A DNA stretch of 64,000 nucleotides from Eubacterium coprostanoligenes. GTDB taxonomy: Bacteria > Bacillota > Clostridia > Oscillospirales > Acutalibacteraceae. Location of the stretch: positions 1-64,000 of the forward strand of contig NZ_FUWW01000003.1 of NCBI RefSeq assembly GCF_900167205.1, written 5' to 3'. Shown one piece after another: positions 4,411-62,330 of this stretch; position 1 is the stretch's first letter, and every line of letters starts with the position of its first letter. A program made the position numbers and the translations under genes. Below the pieces are notes generated by a model, which ran no database searches, was not told the DNA's origin, and was given only the letters and a program-made list of their open reading frames with translations.

Positions 4411-4479
4411 TTACGGTAAAATTTCAAGCCGATAGCCGTCGGGATCTTAGATGAAATAAATGCCCATTTCGTGATTTTC
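4411..4479 (-). pseudogene. C-terminal remnant of a VOC/glyoxalase-family protein
   Basis: On the minus strand this stretch reads ENHEMGIYFI, a stop, then DPDGYRLEILP and a second stop. This is the characteristic end of glyoxalase/VOC proteins, in which xxxYFxDPDGYxLE carries the last metal ligand. An in-frame TAA (4447-4449) interrupts it, and no upstream part of the gene is found toward 4577. It is a decayed fragment. Confidence 0.6.
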
Positions 4480-4577
4480 ACATTGGTTTTATTATTTGTG
4501 AAAAATGCCTAAAAAACCTTTATTTTTAATGATGATTATAGTATAATCGTAATATAGATTGTACGGAGGTTTTAGCT

Positions 4578-6074
4578 ATGGCAAATTGTATATCTGAAAA
4601 AAATGCCGAAAAAAAGTATGTTTCTAAAAAAGAGCTTGTAAATTTTCTTGCAGGTCTTTCGGGTCAAAATCTTGTTTATTCGCTGATTGGCGGCTCCTTC
4701 TTTACATATTTTATGACGGATATTGCTCTGTTTCCTGCAATAACCGTATCGGTATTGCTTATTGTTATGAAGGTGTGGGACGGTATTAACGACCCTGTTG
4801 TAGGCTCATTTATTGACCGCCATACCTTTAAAAGCGGTGAAAAGCTGCGACCGTTTTTGAAATATACGCCGCTTCCCGTCGGTGTGTTTACCGTTTTGCT
4901 GTTTCTTGTGTTCAGCACAAACGAGAATTTGCTTTGGCTTCGGGTATCGTATTTCATCATAATGTATATCTGTTGGGATTTGGCATATACCGTTCAGGAT
5001 GTCAGTGTGTGGGGAATTACCGCTGCAGTATCGCCTAATTCCTCCGAGAGAGACAGATTTGTTCAGTGGTCAAGAACTATCGGCAGTATGGTTTACAGCG
5101 CCTTCAGTACCGTTATTCCTATGGCACTTGAAATGATTGCCAATGCAAAGGGAATGAGTATGTCGCTTGTTACCTTGGTGTTTGCGATTATATTCGGCTT
5201 AGGCGGCTCAATGCTCAGCTACCGCTGCTCATATGCCCGGGAAAGAATTGCCGTCAACAAGGATGAGCAGCAGGAAACTCTGCGTGAAAGCTTTCTGCTT
5301 TTGTTCAAAAACAAAATGCTTTTGCTTGTAACGCTTTCAAATCTTTTCGGCTCTTTCGGCTTCGGAATAAGCCTTGTTACATATTTCTTTAAATATGAAA
5401 TTCCGTCGGATTTTCTCGGAAACGGAATTATCGGCGCGCTGGGACTTACAACTATTTACTTTATCATTACAGGCTTGCCGGGCTTTATCGGAATGTTGTT
5501 TGCCGATTGGATGAAAAAAAGACTTGGCGGATATGTTAATGTTCTTATACTTATTCAGGTGTTTAATATCGTTGCAAGAGCAATTGCATTTTTCGTTGGC
5601 TTTGAGGGAAAAAGGCTGTGGATTTCAATGATAATAATCGGCATAGGCAGTATTCCGTCGGGTGCGTCGTCAATAGCGCAAACATCAATCTTTTGCGACA
5701 GTATTGACTATATGGAGTGGAAAACAGGCAAGAGAACAGAGGGCATTACCTTTTCTATGCAAACCTCCTTTACAAAGATTTCAAGCGGCATAACATCGGG
5801 ACTTGCAACCCTTGCACTTCATCTTCTCGGATATAAGGCTATTGATAATGCGACAAATTATTTAGGCACTCAAACAGCCGCCTTTGATAGCTGGATTTGG
5901 CCTCTTGTAGTTCTTACTCCTGCTGTTGCAAGCGTTTTGTTTATAATTCCGCTTCTGTTTGTTAACTATACAAAGGAAAAAAGAGCACTTGTGGAAAGTG
6001 ACCTTAACGCTCGCAGAAACGGCTTGGCAGAGTCAGGGGAATCACCCTATGCTGAAAACAGGCAAAAAGACTGA
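4578..6074 (+). CDS. GPH/MelB-type sugar:cation symporter
   Basis: A 498-residue integral membrane transporter with about 12 hydrophobic segments. It belongs to the glycoside-pentoside-hexuronide:cation symporter branch of the major facilitator superfamily. The MelB-like signature is visible in MKVWDGINDPVVGSFIDR (about residues 63-80), with a second helix pair and a soluble C-terminal tail. It probably brings an oligosaccharide into the cell with H+ or Na+. The start ATG 4578 has GGAGG upstream. The glucosidase gene follows 18 bases downstream, so the two form an uptake-and-hydrolysis operon for an alpha-glucoside. Confidence 0.88.
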   Translation: MANCISEKNAEKKYVSKKELVNFLAGLSGQNLVYSLIGGSFFTYFMTDIALFPAITVSVLLIVMKVWDGINDPVVGSFIDRHTFKSGEKLRPFLKYTPLPVGVFTVLLFLVFSTNENLLWLRVSYFIIMYICWDLAYTVQDVSVWGITAAVSPNSSERDRFVQWSRTIGSMVYSAFSTVIPMALEMIANAKGMSMSLVTLVFAIIFGLGGSMLSYRCSYARERIAVNKDEQQETLRESFLLLFKNKMLLLVTLSNLFGSFGFGISLVTYFFKYEIPSDFLGNGIIGALGLTTIYFIITGLPGFIGMLFADWMKKRLGGYVNVLILIQVFNIVARAIAFFVGFEGKRLWISMIIIGIGSIPSGASSIAQTSIFCDSIDYMEWKTGKRTEGITFSMQTSFTKISSGITSGLATLALHLLGYKAIDNATNYLGTQTAAFDSWIWPLVVLTPAVASVLFIIPLLFVNYTKEKRALVESDLNARRNGLAESGESPYAENRQKD

Positions 6075-6092
6075 AAGGATATATAATTTATT

Positions 6093-7754
6093 ATGAAAGA
6101 TTGGTACAAGGAATTAGTTGTTTATCAAATTTGGCCTCGCTCCTTCTGCGACGGAAACGGCGATGGCATAGGCGATTTGCAGGGCGTTCTCTCAAAGCTT
6201 GACTACATAAAGGATTTAGGCTGTAACTGTATATGGTTTTCTCCTCTTTATCCCTCGCCCAATGCCGACTACGGCTACGATATTGCCGACTATAAAAATA
6301 TAAATCCCGAATACGGCGACCTCGACCTTTTCAAAAGAGTTTTAGACGAAGCTCACAAGAGAGAAATTAAGGTTATTATGGACCTTGTTGTTAATCATAC
6401 CTCCGACGAGCATCAGTGGTTTATTAATTCAAAGGATCCAAAATCTCCGTATCACAATTATTATATTTGGCGCAAGGGAAAGAAAAACGGCAAGCGTCCG
6501 CCGAATAACTGGCTTTCTTGCTTTGAGGGCGGTGCATGGGAGCAGGACGAAAAATCGGGCGAATACTATCTTCATGTGTTTGCCAAGAAGCAGCCGGACC
6601 TTAACCACGATAACCCAAAGGTAAGGGAGGAGGTTAAGGATATTATGCGCTTTTGGCTTGATATGGGTGTTGACGGCTTCCGTGAGGATGTTATAACCTT
6701 TATATCAAAGCGACCGGGTCTGCCAAACGGCTTTCCTATTCCTGCTGCCTGCGGAATTGAGCACTATATGGATGGACCTAATATTCATCAGTATCTTCAG
6801 GAATACCGCAAGGTAACTGATATGTACGACTGCTTTACCGTTGGTGAAGCTCCTATGATGACTCCTGCAAAGGCTCTCAATTATATTGACGAACGCCATA
6901 AGGAGCTTGACTTAATGTTTCATTTTCAGCATATCGAGGCAGATTGCTTTATGGTTGATTATATTCAAACGAAGTTCGATTTGCGAAAAATGAAAAGAGC
7001 CTTTTCCGATTGGCAAAGAAAAATCAACGGCAGAGCGTGGAATACCCTTTATATCGAAAATCATGACCACCCACGCATTATATCGCGCTACGGCAGTGAA
7101 AAATACAGAACAGAGTCAGGCAAAATGCTTGCCAATATGTATATGCTTCAGCAGGGAACAGCCTTTGTTTATCAGGGGCAGGAAATAGGTATGCTCAATA
7201 CCGAGCTTGATTCTCTCGACGAATACGAGGATTGCTTCGTAAAGAATAATTACAATGTTGCACGAAACAAGGTGCATCTTAACGAGGAAAAATGCTGGCA
7301 GTGGGCAGTTAAGTCAACAAGAGATAACTCAAGAACACCTGTTCAGTGGAATGCCGAGGAAAACGCAGGCTTTACAACAGGCAAGCCCTGGTTTCCCGTA
7401 AACAAAAACTATACCGAAATTAACGCCGAAAATGAAGAGAAAAATCCAAACTCAATCTTAAATCACTATAAGAAGTTAATCAGATTTAAGCGTGAAAATG
7501 AGGTGGCAATTTACGGAGATTACAAGGAGCATTACAAAAGCTCCTCAAAGCTATATGTTTATGAAAGGAATTATAAGGGCAAGCGATTGCTTGTAATTAA
7601 TTCCTTTAGTGATGAACGGGTACCATTTGAAGCACCTAAGGGCTTTGATTTGGAAAAGGGAACACCTATGCTTTGTAATTACGATAATCCCACTGTTCAG
7701 GGCAACGGCTTTATGCTCCGCCCATATGAAACAAGAGTGTATTACTTTGAATAA
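6093..7754 (+). CDS. GH13 alpha-glucosidase (oligo-1,6-glucosidase type)
   Basis: A 553-residue cytoplasmic glycoside hydrolase of family 13, which releases glucose from short alpha-glucosides. All four GH13 regions are present: DLVVNHTS (97-104), GFREDVI with the nucleophile Asp199, VGEAP with the acid/base Glu252, and ENHDHPR with Asp325. There is no signal peptide, so it acts on sugar already inside the cell. This fits the symporter gene 18 bases upstream. Length and start match the MalL/TreA group. Whether the substrate is isomaltose, sucrose, maltose or trehalose-6-phosphate cannot be settled here; the partner is a symporter and not a PTS, which argues against trehalose-6-phosphate. Confidence 0.92.
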   Translation: MKDWYKELVVYQIWPRSFCDGNGDGIGDLQGVLSKLDYIKDLGCNCIWFSPLYPSPNADYGYDIADYKNINPEYGDLDLFKRVLDEAHKREIKVIMDLVVNHTSDEHQWFINSKDPKSPYHNYYIWRKGKKNGKRPPNNWLSCFEGGAWEQDEKSGEYYLHVFAKKQPDLNHDNPKVREEVKDIMRFWLDMGVDGFREDVITFISKRPGLPNGFPIPAACGIEHYMDGPNIHQYLQEYRKVTDMYDCFTVGEAPMMTPAKALNYIDERHKELDLMFHFQHIEADCFMVDYIQTKFDLRKMKRAFSDWQRKINGRAWNTLYIENHDHPRIISRYGSEKYRTESGKMLANMYMLQQGTAFVYQGQEIGMLNTELDSLDEYEDCFVKNNYNVARNKVHLNEEKCWQWAVKSTRDNSRTPVQWNAEENAGFTTGKPWFPVNKNYTEINAENEEKNPNSILNHYKKLIRFKRENEVAIYGDYKEHYKSSSKLYVYERNYKGKRLLVINSFSDERVPFEAPKGFDLEKGTPMLCNYDNPTVQGNGFMLRPYETRVYYFE

Positions 7755-59026: not shown

Positions 59027-59068
59027 AAAAAAGCCGAGGGTCTTAAAAATTTAAGACTTTCGGCTTTT
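59027..59068 (-). terminator. Native terminator of the split tRNA-Arg gene
   Basis: AAAAGCCGA and TCGGCTTTT arms with an inner AAGTCTTAAA stem and a T-run on the minus strand, directly after the tRNA 3' half. Confidence 0.82.
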
Positions 59069-59112
59069 GGCATCCCCGACCGGAATCGAACCGATGGCCT
59101 ACTGCTTAGGAG
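59068..59112 (-). pseudogene. 3' half of a split tRNA-Arg(CCT)
   Basis: On the minus strand the sequence runs from CTCCTAAG (anticodon loop) through GCAGT, a T-arm ATCGG/TTCGATT/CCGGT and an acceptor strand to CCA. There is no D-arm or 5' acceptor strand beside it. The missing 5' half is at 62204-62243; joined, the two give a 77-nt tRNA with perfect ACTGC/GCAGT anticodon stem. Confidence 0.85.
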
Positions 59113-59469
59113 AAGCCCCCGAGGGGCATTTTTGACTCCCTGCAAATCCCCGAAAAACCTTGATTTTACTGGCTTTTCCGAGGTTTTGCTGTCAATAAAT
59201 TCTCGTCCAAAACCTGCTAATTTTTCGTGGTTTTTTGCCTTCCTTTTAGCAAGGTATTAGCAAATGCAAAGAAATATGGGAATATGAGTTGTATTTATAC
59301 CGCCGTATTTCAAATTATTTGATGTCAATAGACGGCGGGTAGAAATATTCATAATTTTGGTGTATAATAGGAAATTAAGAGAAAGACAAATTTGAATTTT
59401 ACGGTCAGTAAGGAATGAGTAAAGTTATATGATTGTATTATAAGCGATTTGTTAAATTTTTATAACCAC
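59113..59469. other. Left arm of the element, non-coding
   Basis: Contains a GAAAAACC/GGCTTTTC hairpin, three TTAGCA-type motifs (59215 inverted, 59246, 59256) and AT-rich sequence leading to the ABC-F promoter. No ORF with a ribosome site is seen. Confidence 0.5.
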
Positions 59470-59498
59470 TTGTATTTGCCTGCAATTTATGGTATAAT
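59470..59498 (+). promoter_or_regulatory. Promoter of the ABC-F leader
   Basis: TTGTAT (59470-59475) and TATAAT (59493-59498) with 17-base spacing. Confidence 0.7.
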
Positions 59499-59526
59499 GT
59501 TTTAGAATTTAGAAAGAGGTGGAAAG

Positions 59527-59550
59527 ATGATTAACTTTTCTTGCAAATAA
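59527..59550 (+). promoter_or_regulatory. Leader peptide 1 of the attenuation region (MINFSCK)
   Basis: AGAGGTGGAAAG precedes ATG 59527, and the seven-codon frame ends TAA 59550. Its own sequence (AACTTTTCTTGC) can pair with 59598-59608, so a ribosome stalled on it would free that segment to form the antiterminator. Confidence 0.65.
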
Positions 59551-59674
59551 AATCAAAATATGCGGTAGTGCTATACTTTGGCATTATTGTGTCTATTGCA
59601 AGAAAGTTATATGTCTATCTTACTCAATATAGTGCTGTTGCCACTTTTGCTTAGTGGTGTTATTATGCTATGAC

Positions 59675-59716
59675 GAGCTGCAAGGATAAACTTTCTTGCG
59701 GCTCTTATTTTGTTTT
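59675..59716 (+). terminator. Attenuator terminator in the ABC-F leader
   Basis: GAGCTGCAAG and CTTGCGGCTC arms followed by TTATTTTGTTTT. The alternative partner of the right arm is GCAAGAAAGTT (59598-59608), perfectly complementary to AACTTTCTTGC (59689-59699), which would prevent the terminator. Confidence 0.78.
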
Positions 59717-59727
59717 GGAGGTGCTTT

Positions 59728-59808
59728 ATGAATAGTGCAGATCAGATAGTTACACATGATTCACTCCGTATAGTGTCGGTTCCTTTTGGTGAAATCTATA
59801 CGGAGTAA
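59728..59808 (+). promoter_or_regulatory. Leader peptide 2 and second switch
   Basis: GGAGGTG precedes ATG 59728, and the 26-codon frame starts MNSADQIVTHDSLR and ends FGEIYTE. Inside it ACTCCGTATAG (59763-59773) can pair with CTATACGGAGT (59796-59806), or GTCGGTT (59775-59781) with AACCGAC (59819-59825). The pairings exclude each other, a second control stage before the ABC-F start. Confidence 0.6.
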
Positions 59809-59861
59809 ACATTCACCGAACCGACTTTATATCGTATGACAGGCAAAGGAGGATAATATTT

Positions 59862-61322
59862 ATGTCAATGATTAAAATTGAAAACCTTACGTTTTCATAT
59901 CCGACAAGTTATGATAATGTTTTTGAAAATGTCAGTTTCCAGGTTGATACCGATTGGAAGCTTGGTTTTGTGGGCAGAAACGGACGAGGTAAAACAACCT
60001 TTCTGAATCTTCTGCTTGGGAAATATGAGTATAGCGGAAAAATCCTATCATCCGTACAGTTTGATTATTTTCCTTATCCCGTTTCAGATAAGAATCGTAT
60101 TACAGAGGATATATTGCAGGAGGTTTGCCCACTTGCGGAAGAATGGGAACTTATGCGAGAACTTTCTTATCTTGATGTTGATGTCGATGTGCTTTGGCGA
60201 CCTTTTGAAACACTTTCCAACGGAGAGCAGACAAAGGTTTTGCTTGCCGCTCTTTTTCTTAATGAAGGGCATTTCCTACTGATTGATGAACCTACCAACC
60301 ATTTGGATGCCAAAGCGAGAAAAAGTGTGGCGACATATCTGAAAAAGAAAAAGGGATTCATCTTAGTTTCTCACGATCGTCGCTTTCTTGACGATTGTGT
60401 TGACCATATTCTATCGATTAACCGAGCGAATATCGAAGTGCAAAGAGGAAACTTTTCATCATGGATGTCAAATTTTGAGCGACAGCAAGAATTTGAACTG
60501 GCTCAGAACGAACGTTTGCAAAAGGACATCAGACGATTACAGCAGTCGGCAAAACGCTCTGCAGTATGGTCTGAACGTGTAGAAGCTTCCAAAATTGGGG
60601 CAGGAGATAAAGGTTATGTCGGTCATAAAGCCGCCAAAATGATGAAGCGTTCAAAATCTATAGAAGCGAGACAACAACAGACAATCGAACAAAAATCAGC
60701 ATTGCTGAAAAATGTGGAAACCGCAGAAGCACTCAAGATACAACCGCTTAATTACCATACAGATTTGATTGCATCATTATCGAATGTAGTAGTTTATTAT
60801 GATGGCATTTCAGTTTGTGAACCCGTTTCGTTTGAAATAAGACAGGGAGAACGCATTGTGCTTGATGGAAAGAACGGCAGTGGCAAAAGTAGCCTGTTAA
60901 AGTTGGTAGTCGGGCAGTCCATAGATTATACGGGTACAGTAACACTTGGCTCTGGGCTTGTAATTTCTTATGTGCCACAGGATACATCGTATTTATGTGG
61001 AACCCTTTCCGAGTTTGCAGAAGAAAACAACCTTGATGAAAGTTTGTTCAAGGCAATTCTTAGGAAAATGGACTTTGAGCGTGTACAGTTTGAAAAGGAT
61101 ATTAAAGACTTTTCTGGCGGGCAAAAGAAGAAAGTCCTAATTGCGAAAAGCCTTTGTGAAAAGGCACACTTGTATGTATGGGATGAACCGCTCAACTTTA
61201 TTGATGTGTACTCACGTATGCAGATTGAACAACTCATAACGGAGTTTGCCCCGACCATGCTCCTGGTAGAACATGACAGTGTTTTTCGAGATACTGTGGC
61301 AAGTAAAATTGTGAATATCTAA
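59862..61322 (+). CDS. ABC-F ribosomal protection protein, Lsa-like
   Basis: A 486-residue soluble ATPase with two ABC domains and no membrane part. First Walker A GRNGRGKTT, signature LSNGEQ, Walker B LLIDEPTNHLD. Second Walker A GKNGSGKSS, signature FSGGQ, Walker B YVWDEPLNFID. The ~80-residue basic linker between them (about 200-280) reaches into the ribosome in this family and dislodges bound antibiotics such as lincosamides, pleuromutilins and streptogramin A. The Lsa/Vga-like assignment is by overall likeness. AAAGGAGG lies before ATG 59862. The leader suggests induction by the drug. Confidence 0.9.
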   Translation: MSMIKIENLTFSYPTSYDNVFENVSFQVDTDWKLGFVGRNGRGKTTFLNLLLGKYEYSGKILSSVQFDYFPYPVSDKNRITEDILQEVCPLAEEWELMRELSYLDVDVDVLWRPFETLSNGEQTKVLLAALFLNEGHFLLIDEPTNHLDAKARKSVATYLKKKKGFILVSHDRRFLDDCVDHILSINRANIEVQRGNFSSWMSNFERQQEFELAQNERLQKDIRRLQQSAKRSAVWSERVEASKIGAGDKGYVGHKAAKMMKRSKSIEARQQQTIEQKSALLKNVETAEALKIQPLNYHTDLIASLSNVVVYYDGISVCEPVSFEIRQGERIVLDGKNGSGKSSLLKLVVGQSIDYTGTVTLGSGLVISYVPQDTSYLCGTLSEFAEENNLDESLFKAILRKMDFERVQFEKDIKDFSGGQKKKVLIAKSLCEKAHLYVWDEPLNFIDVYSRMQIEQLITEFAPTMLLVEHDSVFRDTVASKIVNI

Positions 61323-61518
61323 ATTGGTTCTTCCGCAATTTTACGTTTTTCGCTTTAATAAAAATGGAGAATGCTGATTTACACTGGCATTCCAGTATTG
61401 AAAAATTACAAAATACGGATAATTGCGTAAGAACCTCTAAATTAAAATAATTGTATGGGTTAATTCCAGCTTTACAGAGACTCAAATTCCAGTTTGTCGG
61501 ATTTACTCTAAAATTAGC

Positions 61519-61550
61519 AAAGACCGCTTACAAAAGTGTAGGCGGTCTTT
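61519..61550 (+). terminator. Intrinsic terminator downstream of the ABC-F gene
   Basis: AAAGACCGC and GCGGTCTTT arms with a T-containing tail. Confidence 0.8.
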
Positions 61551-61992
61551 ATTCGTGTTCAGATATATTTGATTTTGAACTTTCTTTTCTTGGCTGAAAG
61601 CACCTTGCAAAGAATATCATCTACTGCGTCCGTGTATCTGCCTTGTGCTATCAGGCTGTTCTTCAAACGGATAAGTGATTGCAACACTTTACCGCAATTA
61701 TATAATAATAAAGGACATAGAGGTAGTGTGCGATTGTCGCTTGACCACCCCTAAATGAACGAATTAACAGGGTAACAACCGCCTTGTCCATTAGCAAAAA
61801 TTTTTTCCGTTTTTTTCTTCAATTAGCAGAGAGGGCATTTTCATTAGCAAAATAGCGAAAATCCTGCTAATTTTTATTAGCAAGCCGTCCACCTGAAAGG
61901 CGGACGACATTAGTTCTAATTTCCATTAGCTGACGGTGAATTTGCTAATGAAAATCCGTGAATTTCTCGATTTTTCTCTTTTTCCGTAAAAA

Positions 61993-62036
61993 TGAAAAAA
62001 CGCCGGAAACCCTTGATTTTACTGGGTTTTCCGGCG
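61993..62036 (-). terminator. Terminator of the intact tRNA-Arg
   Basis: GCCGGAAAACCC and GGGTTTCCGGC arms, with a T-run on the minus strand just past the tRNA. Confidence 0.82.
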
Positions 62037-62043
62037 GAGTTTT

Positions 62044-62120
62044 TGGCGTTCCCGAGGTGATTCGAACACCCGACCTACCGCTTAGGAGGCGGTCGCTCTA
62101 TCCAGCTGAGCTACGGAAAC
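62044..62120 (-). tRNA. tRNA-Arg(CCT), complete, inside the element
   Basis: A 77-nt cloverleaf with encoded CCA. Acceptor GTTTCCG/CGGGAAC, D-arm GCTC/GAGC, anticodon stem ACCGC/GCGGT around CTCCTAA (anticodon CCT, reading AGG), T-loop TTCGAAT. The body differs from the split tRNA in the T-arm, D-loop and stems, so it is a separate lineage, not a copy. It lies between the two halves of the host tRNA gene and has its own promoter 20-50 bases upstream. Confidence 0.97.
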
Positions 62121-62138
62121 ATCTTTAAAATCTATTCA

Positions 62139-62167
62139 ATTATAGGTACAAACTTACTCAATGTCAA
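62139..62167 (-). promoter_or_regulatory. Consensus promoter of the element tRNA
   Basis: On the minus strand perfect TTGACA (62167-62162) and TATAAT (62144-62139) with 17-base spacing, 19 bases before the tRNA, within 45 bases of the element end. Confidence 0.88.
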
Positions 62168-62203
62168 TCGCCTTTGCCCGAAAGGCGGTCGTTATAACAT
62201 ATT

Positions 62204-62243
62204 CTTAGGAGGCAGTCGCTCTATCCTACTGAGCTACGGAGAC
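62204..62243 (-). pseudogene. 5' half of the split tRNA-Arg(CCT)
   Basis: On the minus strand GTCTCCG, D-arm GCTC/GAGC, ACTGC and the anticodon loop CTCCTAAG. It then breaks into unrelated AT-rich sequence instead of GCAGT. The matching 3' half is at 59068-59112. Confidence 0.88.
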
Positions 62244-62301: not shown

Positions 62302-62330
62302 ATTATAATTATATTCTGCCCGATTGTCAA
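62302..62330 (-). promoter_or_regulatory. Consensus promoter of the split tRNA gene
   Basis: On the minus strand perfect TTGACA (62330-62325) and TATAAT (62307-62302), 17-base spacing, about 60 bases ahead of the tRNA 5' half. It shows the host gene was once active and would still transcribe into the element. Confidence 0.85.

What the first reader, a model, noticed from the sequence alone, without database searches (positions are those of the whole stretch)
59068..62243. Element that splits tRNA-Arg(CCT) in the anticodon loop and carries a replacement tRNA
Seen: the minus strand has a tRNA-Arg 5' half ending in CTCCTAAG at 62204 and a 3' half beginning with CTCCTAAG at 59112. Joined, they give 77 nt with perfect anticodon stem, good D-, T- and acceptor stems, a consensus promoter upstream (62302-62330) and a native terminator downstream (59027-59068). 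Between them is 3.1 kb holding an ABC-F gene and a complete but different tRNA-Arg(CCT) with its own perfect TTGACA-17-TATAAT promoter, close to the element end. Known: most tRNA-targeting integrases rebuild the tRNA 3' end; elements that break the gene and supply a stand-in tRNA (as tycheposons do in marine cyanobacteria) are rarer. Inference: a small, integrase-less, resistance-carrying element of this kind in a Clostridia genome, whose removal or loss would be linked to the only AGG-reading tRNA.
Basis: partly seen in the sequence, partly recalled or inferred. Interest (0 to 1): 0.87.

Follow-up and report, generated by a model that had tools for sequence, protein, structure and literature searches.

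The report
Element breaks tRNA gene, brings replacement
A mobile DNA element has cut a bacterium's gene for one arginine tRNA in two and brought its own complete copy; the same trick turns up in many related bacteria, sometimes apparently several times in a row at one gene.

Summary
Confirmed. The two minus-strand halves (62212-62243, 59068-59104), each next to a copy of CTCCTAAG, join to a 77-nt tRNA-Arg(CCT) identical to the intact gene between obgE and rpmA in the nearest relative, an empty site. The insert carries a different, complete tRNA-Arg(CCT), the only intact one among 44 tRNAs found in the 99%-complete genome. It is a remnant: both ends match a 50.2-kb conjugative element in Monoglobus that splits a different tRNA-Arg(CCT) at the same 8 bp and carries an integrase and the same tRNA. 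An Lsa ABC-F block fills its cargo slot. A broken 5' half followed by an intact tRNA occurs at 90 of 119 scan loci. In the order, 26 of 295 genomes match the pattern, against 0 of 295 for the TCT control. Twenty of 119 loci hold two or more broken halves in a row, read as serial replacement. Carrying a stand-in tRNA is known from actinobacteriophages (PMC10865867) and Pasteurellaceae conjugative elements (PMC6028734). New here: Clostridia, tRNA-Arg(CCT), serial arrays, stranded cargo islands.

The parts
62302..62330 (-). original host tRNA promoter, TTGACA-17-TATAAT
   Evidence: read, no tool test
62212..62243 (-). 5' half of the host tRNA-Arg(CCT)
   Evidence: identical to the G012 gene
62204..62211 (-). 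right copy of the 8-bp core CTCCTAAG (anticodon loop)
62121..62203 (-). 83-nt spacer of the right end with a perfect promoter (-35 62162-62167, -10 62139-62144) for the replacement tRNA
62044..62120 (-). complete replacement tRNA-Arg(CCT), the only intact CCT gene found in the genome
61484..62203 (.). right end of the element; two pieces, 61484-61689 and 61689-62212, are 97.1% and 93.9% identical to the Monoglobus element
59862..61322 (+). Lsa-family ABC-F gene (cargo)
   Evidence: NF000167, 774.3 bits against a cut-off of 750
59401..61483 (+). cargo block in the place of the DUF3784 gene of the Monoglobus element; 59388-61503 is 98.7% identical in G294
59315..59400 (.). piece of the right end (upstream of DUF3784 in Monoglobus), 97.7% identical
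59283..59314 (.). 32-bp stretch without a match, where the body of the conjugative element (integrase, transfer genes) is missing
59113..59282 (.). left end of the element (59105-59282 is 94.4% identical to the integrase side in Monoglobus)
59105..59112 (-). left copy of the 8-bp core CTCCTAAG
59068..59104 (-). 3' half of the host tRNA-Arg(CCT)

Best explanation
A conjugative element encoding a tyrosine integrase inserted, by recombination over the 8-bp anticodon-loop sequence CTCCTAAG, into the host's tRNA-Arg(CCT) gene. Because element and host share only those 8 bp, the gene is cut into two dead halves. Function is kept because the element carries a whole tRNA-Arg(CCT), here with its own promoter, just inside its right end. 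The body of the element, with integrase and transfer genes, was later lost, while both ends, the tRNA and an Lsa ABC-F cargo gene remained. The remnant is held in place because it now carries the only intact tRNA-Arg(CCT). SHOWN: split gene, empty site, same ends on a large conjugative element, same core in different tRNAs, sole intact CCT gene found, no match to that integrase in the genome. INFERRED: that the integrase performed the recombination, that the replacement tRNA is expressed and works, that losing it is costly, and the order of events.
For: Empty site with a 77-nt identical gene between obgE and rpmA in G012. Both window ends match the ends of a 50.2-kb element in Monoglobus NZ_OY725736.1 with an integrase (PF00589), relaxase, MobC, VirB4- and VirD4-like genes and two predicted tetracycline resistance genes, which splits a different tRNA-Arg(CCT) at the same 8 bp. 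G000: 44 tRNAs by Rfam, one CCT gene, the element's. CCT pattern 26 of 295 genomes of the order, TCT control 0 of 295. A hybrid of host 5' half with the element tRNA's 3' half would keep complete acceptor and anticodon stems in 12 of 89 cases, against 82 of 89 for the native replacements. Of the 30 fetched loci with integrase relatives, 17 have an intact tRNA-Arg(CCT) and 6 a 3' half in the flanks. Of 12 named genomes, 8 hold a perfect mate (7/7 acceptor, 5/5 anticodon stem) of a broken 5' half, 6 of them on the same contig about 9 to 75 kb away. G000 has no match to the integrase at E 0.001.
Against: No recombination, excision or tRNA expression was observed, and no circular junction was looked for. 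Strong promoters (11 or 12 of 12) occur in 9 of the 10 spacers of window length (83 nt) and in 0 of the other 80; those look much like shuffles, so in most families expression may depend on the host promoter reading through. Of 119 scan loci, 13 are cut by a contig end, 12 show only broken copies and 1 an intact copy followed by a broken one. Of the 26 matching genomes of the order, 8 are cut by contig ends and 4 show no intact copy at that spacing. Of the 30 integrase loci, 5 have no core and 2 are unclear. Of the 12 named genomes, 2 gave no mate, 1 gave 6/7 and 1 was ambiguous; in Angelakisella two 5' halves fit the mate equally, and cross-pairs within a genome can reach 7/7 and 4/5. The deletion history rests on one full-length relative.
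Confidence: 0.9

Rival explanations
1. An ordinary anticodon-loop island: the element carries only a tRNA fragment that restores the host gene at one end, and the complete tRNA is that restored gene.
For: Anticodon-loop integration with a restoring fragment is a common described arrangement (Islander, PMC4383910, passages: 2083 of 3919 islands at the anticodon site). For the related Pasteurellaceae case, PMC6861422 (passages) proposes restoration at one end.
Against: Both host halves are left over in the window and pair with each other, giving the G012 gene exactly; the complete tRNA differs from the host gene in both halves. In 89 scored loci the hybrid would keep full stems in only 12.
Confidence: 0.03
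2. The broken halves are remnants of a tandem tRNA duplication that decayed, with unrelated DNA in between.
For: Some arrays have near-identical 93-bp units (L222), which plain duplication could also make.
Against: The break is at the same 8 bp in different tRNAs and genomes, spacers of 90 loci fall into 27 groups by their first 30 nt (single linkage at 70%, largest group 37), mates can lie kilobases away, and the TCT control gives 0 of 295.
Confidence: 0.03
3. The 3.1-kb unit is a mini-element in its own right, moved by an integrase supplied by a visiting conjugative element, rather than a stranded remnant.
For: Both ends and both cores are kept; a second island without an integrase gene recognised among its ORFs, 9.7 kb with what look like galactose genes, has a right end of the same type in Ruminococcus sp. 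FMBCY1.
Against: Among 295 genomes the cargo block was found full-length only in G000 and G294; in G294 the fetched 5.1 kb hold no core and no element end, and G121 holds two partial pieces (99 and 100%) on two contigs, the one fetched without core or left end. G000 has no match to the integrase.
Confidence: 0.25

Closest known systems
Pasteurellaceae conjugative elements in tRNA-Leu (PMC6028734 and PMC6861422; passages read)
   Same: Conjugative elements with tyrosine recombinases insert at the anticodon loop (11-13 bp); [quoted passage not shown] PMC6861422 suggests that using the anticodon loop widens host range.
   Different: Gammaproteobacteria and tRNA-Leu; XerCD-like recombinases; the second paper instead proposes that one end restores the gene. 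The passages read mention no serial arrays of 5' halves.
tRNA-dependent lysogeny of actinobacteriophages (Guerrero-Bustamante and Hatfull 2024, PMC10865867; abstract, passages and discussion read)
   Different: Phages, tRNA-Lys(TTT); the need for the carried tRNA was tested there, not here. Here the replacement sits 53-83 nt from the core and is itself a target for later insertions.
Cis-mobilizable elements (PMC3146451 passage read; PMC5704250 and PMC7563491 seen in a listing)
   Same: Both attachment ends kept, integrase and transfer genes gone, cargo retained.
   Different: The remnant also holds the only intact copy found of a host tRNA gene.
Dehalococcoides ssrA islands (PMC3146451, passages read)
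   Same: Serial insertions at one RNA gene leave fragment repeats; 15 of 31 islands lack integration modules.
   Different: There a 3' direct repeat of ssrA and a Ccr-like recombinase; here a whole tRNA is supplied and 5' halves accumulate.
Caldiarchaeum tRNA-Thr locus (PMC3293823; section 6 and most of section 7 read)
   Same: A 5' tRNA fragment, an insertion and a complete tRNA in line.
   Different: Archaeal, intron-bearing tRNA, one locus, reconstruction at the border proposed.
Tycheposons (recalled; only passages of a citing paper, PMC10872708, were read)
   Same: Tyrosine recombinase, tRNA association, cargo.
   Different: Not tested; the original description was not available.

Membership tests
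Elements that break a tRNA and carry the stand-in (as in PMC10865867, PMC6028734) | insertion within a host tRNA gene | tested here: met
   joined halves identical to the G012 gene
Elements that break a tRNA and carry the stand-in (as in PMC10865867, PMC6028734) | short common core; host tRNA not rebuilt | tested here: met
   8-bp core, both halves left over; hybrids complete in 12 of 89
[quoted passage not shown]
Elements that break a tRNA and carry the stand-in (as in PMC10865867, PMC6028734) | tyrosine integrase on the element | tested here: inconclusive
   met for the Monoglobus relative (PF00589, 5.7e-15); absent from the window remnant and no match in G000
Elements that break a tRNA and carry the stand-in (as in PMC10865867, PMC6028734) | carried tRNA needed for survival | not testable with these tools
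   sole intact CCT gene found; need not tested
tRNA-dependent lysogeny proper | element is a temperate phage | tested here: not met
   Monoglobus element annotated with relaxase, MobC, VirB4/VirD4-like genes; the pattern found 0 stretches in viral contigs
Pasteurellaceae tRNA-Leu conjugative elements | target tRNA-Leu | tested here: not met
   target is tRNA-Arg(CCT)
cis-mobilizable element | both ends kept, no integrase or transfer genes | tested here: met
cis-mobilizable element | mobilised by a related element | not testable with these tools
   no match to the integrase in G000
anticodon-loop island with restoring fragment (Islander) | element fragment restores the host tRNA | tested here: not met
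   both host halves displaced
tycheposon | features of the original description | not tested
   paper not held; recalled only

The most novel reading that the evidence does not exclude
In Clostridia the tRNA-Arg(CCT) gene has become a docking gene owned by mobile elements: many different elements break it and bring their own copy, later arrivals break the copy of earlier ones, the row of dead 5' halves records the succession, and elements that decay cannot be dropped because they hold the cell's only copy, so their cargo (drug resistance, sugar genes) is kept.
Probability: 0.6. Interest if true: 0.72.

Novelty: new variant of a known kind. Interest (0 to 1): 0.56.

Why it matters
Elements that break a tRNA and bring a stand-in have been shown by experiment in actinobacteriophages (PMC10865867) and described in Pasteurellaceae conjugative elements (PMC6028734). 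Here the same arrangement is widespread in Clostridia at tRNA-Arg(CCT). The pairing test suggests why: with an 8-bp target shared by hosts with different tRNAs, a half-tRNA swap would usually misfold, so a whole tRNA is needed. Remnants that hold the only copy would stay in the chromosome without selection for their cargo, which here includes a predicted resistance gene. Rows of 5' halves may give a countable record of past insertions at one gene. None of the titles and abstract openings listed in my searches pointed to serial arrays of this kind or to tRNA-Arg(CCT) in Clostridia; the library holds open-licence papers only, and most listed papers were not opened.

Tried and rejected
Rejected: ordinary restoring island and decayed tandem tRNAs (see rivals). 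A pattern for all CCT tRNAs in G000 returned nothing because its gap and T-loop were set too narrowly; replaced by Rfam plus ARAGORN. My first hand-made intact/broken test called 12 of the scan matches intact-intact, several of them spacers that imitate a T-loop; replaced by ARAGORN. Three scan loci (L094, L164, L183) look broken at the T-loop, not the anticodon loop, by reading, and were dropped before the count of 90. L173 was dropped from the stem test because it starts too near the edge. In the stem test the register that favours the hybrid was chosen. Viral contigs gave nothing. The stretch upstream of the ABC-F gene folds about as well as its shuffles (z -0.54).

Not all was inspected: searches list many weak matches of which only fetched loci were read. 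Papers opened: PMC3293823, PMC4383910, PMC10872708, PMC3146451, PMC9897764, PMC6907783, PMC10865867, PMC11476347, PMC6861422, PMC6028734, by outline, passages or sections, none in full.
Full report
What is there. On the minus strand of the window a 77-nt tRNA-Arg(CCT) is cut at its anticodon loop. The 5' half lies at 62212-62243 and the 3' half at 59068-59104; each adjoins a copy of CTCCTAAG (62204-62211 and 59105-59112). Between them lie a complete tRNA-Arg(CCT) at 62044-62120 and one ORF of 100 aa or more, 59862-61322, an Lsa-family ABC-F protein above the curated cut-off (774.3 against 750 bits).

The empty site. ObgE was sought in 60 genomes, G000 included; the closest protein outside G000 is in G012 (94%). 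Between its obgE and rpmA lies an intact tRNA-Arg(CCT). Joining the window's host flanks at the core reproduces that gene without a mismatch over the 77 nt. Of the 30 obgE loci fetched, only G012's has a tRNA-Arg(CCT) beside it, so the location is particular to this lineage.

Dependence. Rfam finds 44 tRNAs in G000 (99.01% complete). ARAGORN on their loci gives tRNA-Arg genes with TCT, ACG and CCG anticodons and a single CCT, the element's. That the cell needs it is inferred.

Where the insert comes from. Both ends match an element in Monoglobus pectinilyticus NZ_OY725736.1: left end 94.4% over 59105-59282, right end 93.9-97.1% over 61484-62212. There the cores lie at 418712 and 468937, 50.2 kb apart, and the record lists an integrase next to the left end, a relaxase, MobC, VirB4- and VirD4-like proteins, ParA/ParB and two predicted tetracycline resistance genes. 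The integrase matches PF00589. It has split a tRNA-Arg(CCT) of clearly different sequence at the same 8 bp, and its replacement tRNA reads the same as the window's. In the window the body is missing at a 32-bp stretch (59283-59314), and a block with the ABC-F gene stands where Monoglobus has DUF3784. That block, 59388-61503, is 98.7% identical in G294, in other surroundings. G000 has no match to the integrase. So the window holds a remnant with both ends kept.

How common. By ARAGORN, in 93 of 119 a broken copy is followed by an intact one, 13 are cut by a contig end, 12 show only broken copies and 1 an intact copy followed by a broken one. Three of the 93 look like T-loop breaks, leaving 90. 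Within the order the pattern occurs in 26 of 295 genomes (14 with an intact last copy, 8 cut by contig ends, 4 with neither). The same pattern with the TCT anticodon gave 0 of 295, and the reversed patterns gave none. It was absent from viral contigs.

Why a whole tRNA. In 89 scored loci the native replacement has complete acceptor and anticodon stems in 82; a hybrid of the host 5' half with the element tRNA's 3' half would have them in 12. With only 8 bp shared, a half-tRNA swap would usually spoil the tRNA. This is an argument from pairing, not a test of function. The window spacer has a perfect promoter. Of the 90 spacers, 9 of the 10 with the window's length (83 nt) score 11 or 12 of 12, and 0 of the other 80 do. 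In other families the intact tRNA may be read from the host promoter that still stands upstream of the broken half; this is inference.

Serial replacement. Twenty of 119 loci have two or more successive broken 5' halves. In G020 a window-type right end follows the broken replacement tRNA of another element type, whose first step alone is seen in G033 of the same genus. In G262 four broken 5' halves precede the intact tRNA, with a fifth, diverged one by reading; L194 has a row of six. Rows of near-identical units could also grow by duplication; rows with different spacers (L136) can hardly do so.

Mates and integrases. In 12 named genomes I looked for the far 3' half: 8 have a perfect mate (7/7 and 5/5 pairs), 6 of them on the same contig at about 9 to 75 kb; one has 6/7, one is ambiguous and two have none. 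ARAGORN finds one intact CCT tRNA at the sites matched by the pattern in 11 of the 12; in C. citroniae a second, odd call falls on the far half. Relatives of the integrase were found in 197 of 295 genomes at E 0.001, many of them weak. Of the 30 loci fetched, 17 have an intact tRNA-Arg(CCT) in the flanks, 6 a 3' half, 2 are unclear and 5 have no core.

Against what is known. Two descriptions come close. Actinobacteriophages with a 10-bp core break tRNA-Lys(TTT) and must supply their own, shown by experiment (PMC10865867). Pasteurellaceae conjugative elements insert at the anticodon loop of tRNA-Leu, leave a disrupted gene at both ends and carry an intact copy next to parA (PMC6028734, passages); a later paper proposes instead that one end restores the gene (PMC6861422, passages). 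Islands are usually described as restoring the gene with a fragment (PMC4383910). Serial fragments at one RNA gene and integrase-less remnants are known from Dehalococcoides (PMC3146451). So the stand-in tRNA on a conjugative element is not new. What I did not find described is the spread of this arrangement over many element types at tRNA-Arg(CCT) in Clostridia, the rows of 5' halves, and remnants holding the only copy.

Noticed in passing
L344 380-10056 (Ruminococcus sp. FMBCY1, NZ_CP074197.1): A second island with a right end of the same type (89% identical) and what look like galactose-pathway genes (kinase, epimerase, uridylyltransferase, mutarotase, transporter, LacI-type regulator; names from reading translations, no family search); no integrase was recognised among ORFs of 100 aa or more.
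   Followed up: partly
window near 61484; L033 near 8326; L076 near 1482; L347 near 876 and 1488: A motif AATTCCAGTTTGT marks one side of a cargo slot at the right end: DUF3784 in Monoglobus, another small gene in G262, the ABC-F block in the window; the motif also flanks that block in G294 (read).
   Followed up: partly
L094, L164, L183: tRNA-Arg(CCT) genes that look broken at the T-loop and are followed by a complete tRNA-Arg(CCT), one in Aestuariibacter: perhaps the same strategy with another target point.
   Followed up: no
L194, reverse-complement positions 4424-4985; L222 3120-3592: Rows of successive 5' tRNA halves: six in L194 (units of 94-115 nt), four or five before an intact tRNA in L222 (units of 93 nt).
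   Followed up: partly
L031 (MT837101.1) 7259-7611: A faecal scaffold deposited as a phage holds PTS-like genes (by reading) and a junction of a right arm and tRNA 3' half with a left end; it looks like a bacterial tandem insertion, not a phage.
   Followed up: partly
spacer group of 16 loci beginning like CGGCAGTTCGTTCGA: These short spacers imitate part of a tRNA 3' half, which misleads simple tests; whether this has a role is unknown.
   Followed up: no
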